Source of the DNA: an uncultured Myxococcales bacterium
Lineage (GTDB): Bacteria; Myxococcota_A; UBA9042
NCBI GenBank assembly: GCA_903842345.1
Contig: CAIMLR010000047.1
Coordinates: forward strand, 186,001-250,000
DNA length: 64,000 nucleotides
Direction of reading: 5' to 3'
In this document: positions 13,635 to 16,836 of the stretch, one piece after another
Layout of the letters: every line of letters begins with the position of its first letter
How positions within the stretch are numbered: position 1 is the first letter of the stretch
Made by a program: the position numbers and the translations under genes
The notes under the pieces: generated by a model
What the model saw: the letters and a program-made list of their open reading frames with translations, nothing else
Database searches by the model: none
What the model was told of the DNA's origin: nothing

Positions 13635-13664
13635 TTGACAGCCGCTTTCACGGCAAAGTAGAGT
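13635..13664 (+). promoter_or_regulatory. Strong-looking sigma-70-type promoter for the 13707/14538 cassette
   Basis: Perfect TTGACA (13635-13640), an 18-base spacer and TAGAGT (13659-13664), ending 42 bases before the ATG at 13707. An exact -35 hexamer is rare in this GC-rich sequence. The two-gene unit downstream probably starts here and is independent of the M3 peptidase gene. Confidence 0.55.
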
Positions 13665-13706
13665 TCTGCGCACCGGCACGATGCCGCAATCACTGGAGCG
13701 CAGATC

Positions 13707-14510
13707 ATGGCAAGCCTCTACTTGGGTTTTGACGTCTACATCACCAACATTGTGAGCGCGACGGTCGTGGAGTTCCTCAACTCCGCTGACAGCACGCGTT
13801 ACCGCGTCGATTGGAGCAGCGCGCAATTGACGGGCGACCGCAACCTGCCGGTCCACCTGGACCAACCGACGACGCTGCTGCGGCGGCTGTACGCGACCGG
13901 TCGGCTGTACCTGCTGAACGGCAAGGCAAAGACGCTGGCTGGCGTCGAGGTCGTGCTGCCGGGCGGCAAGGCGCCATTCTCGCAGCAGGAGCACCGCGTG
14001 TATGCGGTCGTGGCGGGCTCGCCAGGCGGTCGCTACACGAACATCACCGTGCGCTACAACGGTCAGCGCCTCGGCATCGACTTTGGCGATCCGACGCAGG
14101 CTTGGCTGGGTTCCCCGTCGACCTTGGCGCTGGATGGGAACGGCTATCCGGTCGCCAACTCGGTCGGCAACGTCGCGCTGCCGCAGACGTTTTGGGGACC
14201 GGCGGGTCTCGCGCAGAATGCCGGCGGCAAGTGGCCGGACAGCCTCGCTCGGGCGGTTGCGCCAGGGTCGATCCCGTGGGGTGGCAAGACGTACCTGCTG
14301 ACGCAGGTTCAGCGTGCGCCTGGCCCCGGCAATCTCGTGGACTTCTGGCTCGATCTCAACAACTTCGCCGCGGAGCCGCAGGATCTGTTCCCCGGCAAGA
14401 TGGAGAAAGGAATCCTCATCGTGCTGCCGGACGGGTACAAGTTTGACCCGCCGGATCCGGGAACGATGTACATCGAGAAGACGTGGCTGAAGAAGCATCT
14501 GGCTGCCTGA
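13707..14510 (+). CDS. Unknown protein, 267 aa, first gene of the His/Cys-dyad cassette
   Basis: I do not recognise this protein. It has no signal peptide, no lipobox, no cysteine and no clear membrane helix. The sequence alternates short beta-prone segments (LYLGFDVYI, NITVRYNG, GILIVLPDGYKF) with Gly/Pro turns, suggesting a beta-rich globular or assembly-forming protein. It starts behind GGAG (13695-13699 area) and ends 27 bases before the next gene, which has its own ribosome site, so the two are almost certainly co-transcribed from the promoter at 13635. Given the predicted caspase-like fold of its partner, it could be that protein's substrate, inhibitor or effector. That is inference only. 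Confidence 0.8.
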   Translation: MASLYLGFDVYITNIVSATVVEFLNSADSTRYRVDWSSAQLTGDRNLPVHLDQPTTLLRRLYATGRLYLLNGKAKTLAGVEVVLPGGKAPFSQQEHRVYAVVAGSPGGRYTNITVRYNGQRLGIDFGDPTQAWLGSPSTLALDGNGYPVANSVGNVALPQTFWGPAGLAQNAGGKWPDSLARAVAPGSIPWGGKTYLLTQVQRAPGPGNLVDFWLDLNNFAAEPQDLFPGKMEKGILIVLPDGYKFDPPDPGTMYIEKTWLKKHLAA

Positions 14511-14537
14511 GAGCTGACCCTGGGGTGGGAGGACATC

Positions 14538-15587
14538 ATGTGGTATCGCACGGAGCAGAAGGACGGGGTGACCCGCTACCGCTGCATGGTCTTCTCCAAC
14601 CTGCCCGACGACACCGTGTTGGGACCGCTCATGCGCCGGTGCCCCTGGGCGGCGGTCACCGATTCGGTGGACATGTTGCCCGGCGTGCTTGAAGGAATTG
14701 TCGACAGCTTGCCGCCAGAAGCGGGCGGCAAGCTGGACCGGATCGACCTCGTTGGGCATGCCGGCAGCGCCGCCCTGCAACTGGGTGATGGAAGCGGCAA
14801 TCCGAACGATGTGTCCGAGCACTTCATTCACATGAATGCAGACGCGCTGGCAACCGTGTCGACGGCGGTGCGGCAGCACCTCCGGCCCGGTGGCGAGATC
14901 CGGCTCCTCGGTTGCCAAACGGCCACGACGCCGGCGCGTGGCAGTGTTTCCATCGACAACGACGGCGCTGGGCTCTGCGGCACGCTCGCCCGGCATTCCG
15001 GACACATCGTCCAGGGTTCATGCCGGGACATCGTCACCGGCGATTTCGACGCTGACGGATTCGTCGACAAGGAGCAGATGCTCGTCGCGTTCAACCCGCT
15101 TGCGCTCGGTGCCAGCGATCCACTGGGGGGACCGGCGCCACCGGTCGAAGCCGCCGAAACATCGACGCCGCTCGTGCGCAGTGTGCCGATTGCAGCCACG
15201 GCGGCATGCGGCGGTCGCAAGGGTTTCAGCGTCGAGGATGGCGTGGTCCTCCTGCCGCCGGAGACGCCGCTTGGACCTCCGGACTCCCGGTGGCCGTGGT
15301 CGCGCACTCAACAAGAGCTGGTCGCCGCACTCGACGCCTTGACCGTGCCGACGCTGCTGGCGTTCCTTCAGGCGCCGCTCGCGCGTCGGGATCCCGCGCT
15401 TGGGCTGCGGCGCCGCGTCCGGCGGATCGTCGGGCTGAACGGGAAGCCGCTCGGCGAAATCGCGCTCATTGGCAACGGCGAATTGCTGCACATGGCCGAC
15501 GGTCAGGAGGCCTGGAGCGTGGCCGGCAGCGCGTTGCTCGAGACGCTGCGGGCGCAATCCGCCGCGCCGGACGGGACTCTGGTGTAG
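14538..15587 (+). CDS. Putative caspase-like (DUF4347-type) His/Cys-dyad protein with EF-hand-like loop
   Basis: 349 residues, no signal peptide. Residues 68-76 (RIDLVGHAG, H74) and 119-129 (GEIRLLGCQTA, C126) have the hydrophobic-strand-HG and strand-Cys arrangement of clan CD caspase-like peptidases, closest in pattern to DUF4347 domains, where HG...LG is followed by LLxGC. Between them is LQLGDG, also typical. Directly after the domain is DFDADGFVDKEQ (169-180), which fits an EF-hand/dockerin calcium loop except for Gln at position 12. The C-terminal about 150 residues are unassigned and contain a short strand-rich unit (LNGKPLGEIALIGNGELLHM). GGAGG lies 6 bases before the ATG. Protease activity is not proven: the dyad is seen, the rest is inferred from fold pattern. 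Confidence 0.7.
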   Translation: MWYRTEQKDGVTRYRCMVFSNLPDDTVLGPLMRRCPWAAVTDSVDMLPGVLEGIVDSLPPEAGGKLDRIDLVGHAGSAALQLGDGSGNPNDVSEHFIHMNADALATVSTAVRQHLRPGGEIRLLGCQTATTPARGSVSIDNDGAGLCGTLARHSGHIVQGSCRDIVTGDFDADGFVDKEQMLVAFNPLALGASDPLGGPAPPVEAAETSTPLVRSVPIAATAACGGRKGFSVEDGVVLLPPETPLGPPDSRWPWSRTQQELVAALDALTVPTLLAFLQAPLARRDPALGLRRRVRRIVGLNGKPLGEIALIGNGELLHMADGQEAWSVAGSALLETLRAQSAAPDGTLV

Positions 15588-15594
15588 CGCCCTG

Positions 15595-15648
15595 CTCGAC
15601 AGTAACGCCCTACTCGACAGCAACGCCTTAGTCGACAGTAACGCCTTA
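15595..15648. repeat. 18-bp tandem repeat, three copies, ending in the purT stop codon
   Basis: Three 18-bp units (15595-15612, 15613-15630, 15631-15648) close to CTCGACAGTAACGCCTTA, preceded by a partial unit. They fill the gap between the convergent cassette and purT, and the last three bases are the purT stop codon. The short unit and few copies suit a replication-slippage minisatellite. No hairpin or T-run was seen, so a terminator role is not supported. Confidence 0.8.
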
Positions 15649-16836
15649 TTCGAGAATCGCGACGCAGTCCGCCGCGCGCTTGGCCTTTGCGCGCGCCTCG
15701 TCCGTCGTCGCGCCCAGCGCGAGCGCCACGCCCATGCGGCGGTACTTGTGCGCGCGCGGCTTGCCAAAGATGCGCAGGTCCGTCCCCGGCTCCGCCAGCG
15801 CCGCCGCCAGCCCGGTGTAGCGCGGCGCCTCCAGGGTCCGGTCAGCCAGGATCACCGCTGAGGCCGCCGGTCCGTACGTCCGCAGGTCCGGAATGGGCAG
15901 GTCCAGCACGGCGCGCAGGTGCAGCTCAAATTCGCTCATGGACTGGCTGATCAGCGTCACCAACCCGGTATCGTGCGGCCGCGGCGACAGCTCGGAGAAC
16001 ACGACGCCGTCGGCGGCAAGGAAGAACTCGACGCCGAAGAGCCCCGCGCCCGGGCCATGCTCGCCCTTGCACAGCGCGCCTGTCACACGTTCCGCCATGT
16101 CCTGCGCGGTCTTGAGCACGTCCGCCGGCATCGCCGCGGGCATCCACGATTCCTGGTAGTCACCGCGCTCCTGACGATGGCCAATCGGGTCGCAAAAATG
16201 CACCTTGCCGTCGCGCGTCCGCACCGTCAGCAGGGTAATTTCCAGGTCAAACTGGATGAAACCCTCGACGATGACGCGCAGATTCTTGGCGCGCGCGCCG
16301 GCCATCGCGTAGTCCCAGGCGACCTGCACGTCTTCGGGCTTCCTGCACACGCTCTGACCTTTGCCCGACGACGACATGATCGGCTTGACGACGCACGGAT
16401 AGCCAAGCGCGTCCGCCGCCGCGCGCAGCTCCTCCGCCGTCGTCGCGTACGCATACGGTGCCGTGCGGAGGCCCAGATCCTGGGCGGCAAGCTCGCGAAT
16501 CATCTCGCGGTTCATCGTGATCTGCGCGGCTTTGGCGGTCGGACTCACGCGAATGCCCTGCGCCTCGAACTCGGCGAGAACGTGGGTCGCGATCGCCTCG
16601 ACTTCCGGAATGAGCACGTCCGGCTTCGCCGCCAGAATGGCCGCCCGCAGCGCGTCGGCATCGAGCATGGAGACGACGACGCGCTCGTTGGCGACCTGCA
16701 TCGCCGGGGCGCCGTCATAGCTGTCCGCGGCGATGACATACTGGCCCAAGCGCTGCGCCGCCAGCGCAACTTCCTTGCCGAGCTCGCCCGAACCCAACAA
16801 CATCAAACGCTTGGGAAACACAGTCTGGTTCGCCAT
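15646..16836 (-). CDS. purT: Formate-dependent GAR transformylase PurT
   Basis: ATP-grasp enzyme that makes formyl-glycinamide ribonucleotide from GAR, formate and ATP in purine synthesis, in the cytoplasm. 396 residues, the family length. Seen: the N-terminal [19 protein letters not shown], the ATP-grasp segment [32 protein letters not shown], and the metal/active region [24 protein letters not shown]. The ATG at 16836 is chosen over a TTG two codons upstream because GGAGG sits 6 bases before it. No other purine gene is nearby. Its 3' end abuts the 18-bp repeat. Confidence 0.96.

What the first reader, a model, noticed from the sequence alone, without database searches (positions are those of the whole stretch)
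13635..15587. Two-gene cassette: unknown protein plus caspase-like His/Cys protein with a calcium loop
Seen: a perfect TTGACA promoter, two genes 27 bases apart, no signal peptides, and in the second protein H74 (LVGHAG) and C126 (LLGCQTA) placed as in caspase-like clan CD proteins, followed at once by an EF-hand-like loop at 169-180. Known: clan CD peptidases such as metacaspases and clostripain-like enzymes are often calcium-dependent, and DUF4347 domains share the HG/GC spacing. Inference: a calcium-switched protease with a dedicated beta-rich partner (substrate, effector or inhibitor), possibly a defence or self-killing module. The partner matches no family I know, and stand-alone DUF4347-type proteins of this size are unusual, since the domain is normally part of very large adhesins.
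Basis: partly seen in the sequence, partly recalled or inferred. Interest (0 to 1): 0.75.

Follow-up and report, generated by a model that had tools for sequence, protein, structure and literature searches.

The report
Caspase-like protease with dedicated partner
Two neighbouring genes in an uncultured myxobacterium encode a probable caspase-like cutting enzyme and a small partner protein, and in relatives this pair usually sits beside a large membrane sensor kinase, which suggests an undescribed signal-to-protease switch.

Summary
In detail: a TTGACA promoter-like site, two genes 27 bases apart, and His74/Cys126 placed as in clan CD cysteine peptidases. Both residues are invariant in 31 of 31 family members, window included. 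The predicted core best matches Tce1, a putative cysteine protease deposited as DUF4347, then CHAT, C11 and CPD domains. The calcium loop is not conserved: 1 of 31 has the full pattern.

The pair is a real unit. Each of the 31 proteases has a small ORF beside it; 25 of these form one undescribed family (literal KWP motif in 22). In 28 of 31 a kinase–nSTAND1–transmembrane–FGE protein, in four only its contig-cut fragment, lies within 3 kb, 25 within 150 bp; 11 of 13 Myxococcaceae pairs also have a sigma54 activator alongside. The window pair has no such kinase nearby.

Best reading: a membrane STAND kinase sensor controlling a DUF4347-type caspase-like effector together with its partner, akin to predicted STAND–FGS conflict systems (PMC8195603). 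Activity, substrate and role are untested. It is a new variant of a known kind; my literature searches found no description of it.

The parts
13635..13664 (+). sigma-70-like promoter: TTGACA, 18 bases, TAGAGT
   Evidence: 10 of 12 matches; shuffles 0.2; only match in 64 kb, 0.11 expected
13707..14510 (+). partner protein, 267 aa, undescribed 'KWP' family; two related beta repeats plus an unassigned C-terminal third
   Evidence: 11 of 11 partner-profile hits in the family are next to a protease gene; no Pfam match, 12 members scanned; repeats, hhalign d1 vs d2 probability 96
13983..14261 (+). repeat 2 of the partner (residues 93-185), the part shared with Myxococcaceae partners
   Evidence: hhalign against the alignment of 13 Myxococcaceae partners: probability 93, E 2.4e-7
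14229..14237 (+). K175-W176-P177 of the partner, invariant in alignments A4 (12 rows) and A8 (10 rows)
14538..15587 (+). DUF4347-related caspase-like protein, 349 aa, core about residues 11-188
14757..14759 (+). His74 codon, predicted catalytic dyad
   Evidence: invariant in 31 of 31
14913..14915 (+). Cys126 codon, predicted catalytic nucleophile
   Evidence: invariant in 31 of 31
15042..15077 (+). EF-hand-like string DFDADGFVDKEQ (residues 169-180); not conserved
   Evidence: full pattern in 1 of 31
15105..15584 (+). C-terminal extension of the protease (residues 190-349), mostly low-confidence in the model; other long members also extend here
   Evidence: 12 of 31 are over 250 aa (lengths); model

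Best explanation
The second gene encodes a cytosolic DUF4347-related cysteine peptidase of the caspase-like (clan CD) fold, with His74 and Cys126 as catalytic dyad. The first gene encodes its dedicated partner, most likely a regulator (inhibitor or adaptor) rather than a bystander. In most relatives the pair belongs to a module whose sensor is a membrane protein: a Ser/Thr kinase domain and an nSTAND1 NTPase in the cytosol, one transmembrane helix, and an FGE/C-type-lectin-like domain outside. I infer that ligand binding to the FGE domain makes the STAND part assemble and the kinase fire, and that this releases or activates the peptidase by acting on the partner or on the peptidase; in most Myxococcaceae pairs and two other loci a sigma54 activator probably sets expression. 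Shown here: homology, fold class, dyad conservation, gene linkage, domain architecture. Inferred: topology, the order of events, the partner's role, proteolytic activity, and a role in defence or programmed death. The window pair has no kinase next to it; it either works with one of the two kinases at the genome's other locus (contig C36) or has become independent.
For: H and C invariant in 31 of 31. Model core matches clan CD chains: 9qpe_G Tce1 Z 13.0, rmsd 3.5, 153 aligned; SAVED-CHAT 8.8; C11 7.9; TcdB CPD 7.8. All 11 partner-profile hits in the family sit beside a protease gene; a small ORF lies within 151 bp of the protease gene in 30 of 31 loci and 406 bp away in G084:C71. Kinase-nSTAND1-FGE, in four loci only its contig-cut fragment, within 3 kb in 28 of 31, within 150 bp in 25. 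In the eight family genomes that have the protease, 12 of 13 strong nSTAND1 matches lie at pair loci. VALK, DFG and one membrane segment after nSTAND1 in 20 of 20 kinases that I had selected by P-loop and HxDLK motifs. Sigma54 activator within 110 bp in 13 of 31.
Against: No such kinase lies within 8 kb of the window pair. Foldseek alone ranked short-chain dehydrogenases first (TM about 0.25), and the model's mean pLDDT is only 56.5. Of 14 family genomes without the protease, 6 still have an nSTAND1 protein, so the sensor does not need this effector. In 6 of 31 pairs the small neighbour is not demonstrably homologous to the KWP family, and many partners outside the profile hits were picked by reading the neighbourhood. 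No PADLOC match for the pair proteins scanned. No experiment bears on activity.
Confidence: 0.55

Rival explanations
1. The partner is the substrate: the peptidase cleaves the KWP protein and the product is the effector (a pro-toxin or pore former, as in bacterial gasdermin systems recalled from the literature).
For: Strict adjacency; partners are 129-314 aa. In 8 of the 11 convergent family-f1 pairs the partner gene follows the kinase gene on the same strand and the protease gene is convergent; in the other 3 (G010, G180, G113) it is the protease gene that follows the kinase.
Against: The conserved core is a single or doubled beta repeat; no gasdermin-like Pfam match in the 12 partners scanned; no Foldseek match at E 0.001 or better, though the model was poor.
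Confidence: 0.25
2. A secreted or injected effector-immunity or effector-chaperone pair: the DUF4347-type protease is exported like Tce1 of the Pseudomonas type VI system and the partner neutralises or carries it.
For: Tce1 is the best fold match and is deposited as a DUF4347 protein; PMC13323088 passages describe it as a putative cysteine protease bound by Hcp3.
Against: In 28 of 31 loci a sensor kinase is a near neighbour. I noticed no secretion gene beside the 31 pairs, but did not search for one. The same passages report no obvious immunity gene near the Tce genes.
Confidence: 0.1
3. Calcium-switched protease, with the loop at 169-180 as the sensor.
For: The window sequence DFDADGFVDKEQ and the partial string in G010.
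Against: Full pattern in 1 of 31; the loop position keeps only a loose DF...GF or similar.
Confidence: 0.07
4. A non-catalytic clan CD protein that serves as a scaffold or sensor domain.
For: No activity has been shown for this branch; Tce1 did not impair growth of E. coli or yeast according to the passages read in PMC13323088, where little Tce1 was detectable in yeast.
Against: H74 and C126 are invariant in 31 of 31 divergent proteins, while neighbouring glycines vary.
Confidence: 0.15

Closest known systems
DUF4347 (Pfam PF14252), including Tce1/PA0256 (PDB 9qpe)
   Same: Same fold class and His/Cys placement: 52 residues apart here, 54 in Tce1 (His186/Cys240 as given in a passage of PMC13323088). 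15 of 18 members of alignment A3, window included, match PF14252 at E up to 1, best 8.2e-7. The family profile also hits 7 of 7 DUF4347-like proteins outside the module (E-values for a set of 7).
   Different: The window protein scores below the Pfam cut-off and the family profile reaches Tce1 by sequence only at E 0.43. It has a KWP partner and, in relatives, a kinase-STAND sensor; Tce1 is a type VI cargo.
STAND NTPase-FGS conflict systems (PMC8195603, section 7)
   Same: Central nSTAND1 NTPase, C-terminal FGS/FGE domain, S/T/Y kinase among the N-terminal options listed there, and caspase and trypsin among the effectors.
   Different: Here the kinase is the fused domain and the caspase-like protein is a separate DUF4347-type gene with a KWP partner. 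DUF4347 does not occur in that paper's main text. A hydrophobic segment separates NTPase and FGE.
CHAT / Craspase and SAVED-CHAT peptidases
   Same: Clan CD core matched by the model (Z 6.6-8.8); regulated by a partner complex (recalled).
   Different: No CHAT match in Pfam; no CRISPR, TPR or SAVED part was seen here.
Bacterial caspase homologues (Peptidase_C14, metacaspases; PMC3501461)
   Same: His/Cys dyad; FGE-sulfatase is a recurrent fusion partner of metacaspases (33 sequences) according to passages of that paper.
   Different: No PF00656 match; H and C lie in DUF4347-type motifs; calcium dependence is not indicated.
Bacterial gasdermin-protease pairs (recalled)
   Same: Caspase-like protease beside a protein of about 270 aa.
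   Different: No gasdermin match; the partner is a repeated beta domain with a KWP signature.

Membership tests
DUF4347 (PF14252) | score above the curated Pfam cut-off (24.6 bits) | tested here: not met
   17.6 bits, residues 64-131; 15 of 18 members of A3 match at E up to 1, best 8.2e-7. I therefore call the window protein DUF4347-related.
Clan CD (caspase-like) peptidases | conserved His then Cys after successive core strands | tested here: met
   strands E66-72 and E115-124 precede H74 and C126 in the model; both residues in 31 of 31
Clan CD (caspase-like) peptidases | caspase-haemoglobinase fold | tested here: met
   VIA-align: clan CD chains fill ranks 1-8, Z 13.0 to 7.3. Caveats: only ranks 1 and 2 stand above Z 8; Foldseek alone ranked dehydrogenases first, and they appear from rank 9 (Z 7.3).
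Clan CD (caspase-like) peptidases | peptidase activity dependent on Cys | not testable with these tools
   needs an assay
Metacaspase / Peptidase_C14 | PF00656 match | tested here: not met
   no match at E up to 1 in the window protein or in any of the 18 members of A3
Calcium-dependent protease | conserved calcium-binding loop | tested here: not met
   full EF-like pattern in 1 of 31
STAND-FGS conflict systems (PMC8195603) | STAND NTPase fused to C-terminal FGS with an effector or kinase N-terminally | tested here: met
   for relatives only: Pkinase + nSTAND1 + FGE-sulfatase in 5 of 5 neighbours scanned with Pfam; the protein or a fragment at 28 of 31 loci
STAND-FGS conflict systems (PMC8195603) | such a protein beside the window pair | tested here: not met
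   none within 8 kb of the window pair; the genome's two strong nSTAND1 matches (E up to 1e-30) are both on contig C36, not on the window's contig C47
STAND-FGS conflict systems (PMC8195603) | diversity-generating retroelement nearby | not tested
   no reverse-transcriptase search was made
Known anti-phage defence systems (PADLOC) | match of the pair proteins to a PADLOC model | tested here: not met
   no match in the 7 pair proteins scanned (window pair and five proteins of relatives); the 2 kinases scanned match 32 models each, mostly over the kinase domain (mad6, PD-T4-6), one (C3a189) over residues 68-815 or 68-839
Bacterial gasdermin | gasdermin fold of the partner | tested here: inconclusive
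   no Pfam gasdermin match; partner model too poor (pLDDT 49.7)

The most novel reading that the evidence does not exclude
Myxococcota carry a dedicated signal-to-protease switch in which a membrane kinase-STAND-lectin receptor, by phosphorylation and assembly, unleashes a DUF4347-type caspase-like effector from a new KWP-repeat partner to kill or remodel the cell: a bacterial analogue of receptor-kinase-controlled caspase signalling, with DUF4347 as a cytosolic effector class. The window shows a copy that has escaped or lost its receptor.
Probability: 0.35. Interest if true: 0.82.

Novelty: new variant of a known kind. Interest (0 to 1): 0.6.

Why it matters
It gives DUF4347, a domain known from giant surface-type proteins and a type VI cargo, a cytosolic signalling context with a candidate sensor, regulator and partner. 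It also supplies a compact gene set (kinase-STAND-FGE, KWP protein, caspase-like peptidase, sigma54 activator) in culturable myxobacteria such as Corallococcus, where the question whether bacterial receptor kinases control caspase-like proteases can be tested directly.

Tried and rejected
Dropped rows. together gave 38 distinct protease-profile places; 31 form the pair table. Seven were set aside as DUF4347-like proteins without the module: L066 and L068-L071 (1277-2209 aa), L067 (222 aa) and L104 (389 aa). All 7 keep the H and C region. The one search match in G057 (L018) lies in a long unrelated protein and was discarded; the G049 match at E 0.04 was not used.

Calcium switch: rejected on conservation. 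Phage or plasmid origin: no match of the window protease in the phage or plasmid collections, no PHROGs match for 4 proteins, no relative in viral contigs with alignment A6; GC and GC3 of the pair are like the surroundings. The first genome-contig scan, with the window protease alone, found no relative. Conserved position: the M3 peptidase gene upstream of the pair is found in all four same-genus relatives (in two pieces in G152); in none of the four is the next gene one of the pair (G044 and G152 share a similar next gene, G015 and G054 have others). Only about 1.5 kb of flank was seen.

Partner fold: the model is poor; the best Foldseek rows are EF-P/IF5A at E about 0.1, which I do not interpret. 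I could not show homology of the small neighbours of G084 (3 loci), G368, G245 and G113 to the KWP family (hhalign probability 6.5 or less), so they count as neighbours only. Three of the 13 Myxococcaceae partners (G395, G437, G390) lack a literal KWP. A third repeat in the partner was not supported.

Literature. DUF4347 occurs in 4 papers of the held library; DUF4347 with caspase in 0; nSTAND1 with Myxococc- in 0; nSTAND1 with caspase in 2; FGE-sulfatase, STAND, caspase and kinase together in 2. I read section 7 of PMC8195603 and found passages of PMC7159879, PMC10907252, PMC8195603, PMC13323088, PMC8262886 and PMC3501461; other listed papers were seen as search listings only.

Caveats on counts: gene calls in relatives come from a simple codon-usage caller of my own plus reading of ORFs, and partners outside the profile hits were chosen by reading the neighbourhood. 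In G084:C71 a called 64-aa ORF lies between protease and partner. The kinase and activator scan used profiles that I built from 5-6 of these same proteins. Genome searches were samples of each group, and pairs from one genus are not independent.

Full report
What was checked. The two ORFs, the 27-base gap, the promoter-like site, His74, Cys126 and the string DFDADGFVDKEQ are all present at the stated coordinates. The only Pfam signal in the second protein is a sub-threshold DUF4347 match (17.6 bits, cut-off 24.6); the first has none. NCBIfam has none for either.

Where it is. The window lies in a 5.8 Mb genome of 50 contigs. Four same-genus genomes (G152, G044, G054, G015) have contigs of exactly the lengths of records titled 'uncultured Myxococcales bacterium' with isolate names YR2, AlinenLipids, Ja1 and MJ-time. 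That these are freshwater-lake assemblies is my reading of the isolate names, not a tool result.

Relatives. A phylum sample of 282 genomes gave protease matches in 7 genomes, own genome included, one of which (G057) I judged spurious, and partner matches in 4, own included. Profiles gave 13 protease places in 8 of 22 family genomes, 11 partner places in 7 of 22, 24 protease places in 17 of 377 phylum genomes (it contains the 13) and 14 in 13 of 76 genomes of the family of Corallococcus exercitus (the way there was L077, found). That makes 38 distinct places; after setting aside 7 DUF4347-like proteins outside the module, 31 proteases remain.

Dyad. In the alignment of 31 proteins, His74 and Cys126 are in 31 of 31; G83, L124 and G125 in 30; G73 in 28. 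Identity to the window protein is 19-29% for the 17 relatives in alignment A3. The seven DUF4347-like proteins outside the module also align over the H and C region. The full EF-hand-like pattern occurs in the window alone (1 of 31); G010 has a partial one at the same place and G054:C100 a partial one elsewhere.

Fold. The AlphaFold2 model of the protease (10 sequences) has a mean pLDDT of 56.5; block means in residues 11-180 are mostly 60-86, dipping to 45-57 around 81-100 and 131-140. Foldseek ranked dehydrogenases first with TM about 0.25. VIA-align, given Foldseek's top 1000 chains, put 9qpe_G (Hcp3-Tce1) first at Z 13.0, rmsd 3.5, 153 residues; then SAVED-CHAT 8.8, C11 7.9, TcdB CPD 7.8, Craspase CHAT 7.3; dehydrogenases follow from rank 9 at 7.3 and below. 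Tce1 is deposited as a DUF4347 domain-containing protein; the family profile reaches it by sequence only at E 0.43. [quoted passage not shown]

Partner. The 12 partners scanned have no Pfam family beyond seven single weak matches at E 0.038 or more. Invariant columns of A4 and A8 include K175, W176 and P177. The first 92 and next 93 residues are repeats of each other (hhalign probability 96, E 1e-9), and repeat 2 is homologous to the alignment of 13 Myxococcaceae partners of 129-203 aa (probability 93, E 2.4e-7). Thus 25 of 31 pairs (12 + 13) have a KWP-family partner, 22 with a literal KWP; the other 6 have a small ORF in the same place whose homology I could not show. All 11 partner-profile hits in the family sit next to a protease gene.

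Orientation. In family f1 the two genes are convergent in 11 of 13 pairs and often overlap, by exactly 26 nt in five; in the window, G054:C100 and the other 18 pairs they run the same way. In 8 of the 11 convergent pairs the partner follows the kinase on its strand, in 3 (G010, G180, G113) the protease does. Adjacency that survives such rearrangement argues for a functional link.

The module. In 28 of 31 pairs a protein with kinase, nSTAND1 and FGE parts lies within 3 kb, 25 of them within 150 bp; in four (G180, G395, G437, G390) only a fragment cut by the contig end is seen. Exceptions: the window, G054:C100 (the pair starts 321 bases from the contig end) and G084:C71. Pfam confirms Pkinase, nSTAND1 and FGE-sulfatase in 5 of 5 scanned. 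Of the proteins over 1000 aa, 20 passed a filter for a P-loop and an HxDLK motif (those of L017, L062 and L065 did not); all 20 have VALK, DFG and a single hydrophobic region after nSTAND1. A sigma54 activator lies within 110 bp in 13 of 31 pairs: 11 of 13 Myxococcaceae pairs plus G084:C75 and G368; of three checked with Pfam all have the sigma54 domain and two a GAF domain. It was not found at the 13 family-f1 pairs. In the eight family genomes with the protease, 12 of 13 strong nSTAND1 matches are at pair loci; six of the 14 family genomes without a protease hit also have an nSTAND1 protein, so the sensor also occurs without the pair.

The window copy. No such kinase was found within 8 kb of the window pair, and the genome's two strong nSTAND1 matches are both on contig C36, flanking its other pair. 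The M3 peptidase gene upstream of the window pair is conserved in the four same-genus relatives, but in none is the pair behind it. The pair is therefore either a displaced copy or one that lost its receptor.

Mechanism. From general knowledge of STAND NTPases (ligand-driven assembly), receptor kinases and clan CD peptidases (latent enzymes released by a partner), I infer: an outside cue binds the FGE/lectin-like domain; nSTAND1 assembles; the kinase phosphorylates the partner and/or protease; the protease becomes active. Steps after gene linkage and domain content are inference. PMC8195603 section 7 predicts that STAND-FGS proteins, including versions with S/T/Y kinase domains, are counter-invader systems; that is itself a prediction. 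The two kinases scanned match kinase models of PADLOC (mad6, PD-T4-6, C3a189), the pair proteins none; shared kinase domains alone do not show a defence role.

Novelty. The separate elements are known: DUF4347-type putative clan CD proteases (Tce1), STAND-FGS proteins, caspases in conflict systems. The KWP partner family and the linkage of a DUF4347-type peptidase to a kinase-nSTAND1-TM-FGE receptor were not found in the papers that my searches reached. I therefore file it as a new variant of a known kind.

Noticed in passing
window 15588-15653: An 18-nt unit repeated in tandem (start-to-start spacing 18, 18) directly after the protease stop codon, running into the end of the convergent gene called at 15646-16836.
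   Followed up: partly
20 kinase-nSTAND1-FGE proteins (loci L013 to L101): 19 of 20 kinases have HCD or HAD instead of HRD in the catalytic loop (only the L046 one has HRD), i.e. non-RD kinases, a trait recalled from eukaryotic immune kinases.
   Followed up: no
L077 8181-9044 and 11540-12511; L094 8315-9274: Further peptidase genes lie inside or beside the module in Myxococcaceae: a Peptidase_C14 caspase, an astacin-like protein and a trypsin.
   Followed up: partly
L095 4704-5312, L096 4503-5123, L077 10936-11469: Small proteins (177-206 aa) with a shared HERVLE-type stretch near the kinase or protease genes; the L096 one has no Pfam match, the others were not scanned. Possibly a further accessory part.
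   Followed up: partly
L066, L068, L069, L070, L071: Large DUF4347-like proteins (1277-2209 aa), several beside genes that look to me like a secretion apparatus (not searched); their H and C are kept.
   Followed up: partly
G000:C36 (L020 4467-13059): The genome's second pair is flanked by two kinase-nSTAND1-FGE genes, 139 and 58 bases away; two such genes on one contig also occur in G015, G044 and G054.
   Followed up: yes
L067 3953-4621 and L104 6592-7761: Stand-alone DUF4347-like proteins (222 and 389 aa); their neighbours were listed but not analysed.
   Followed up: no
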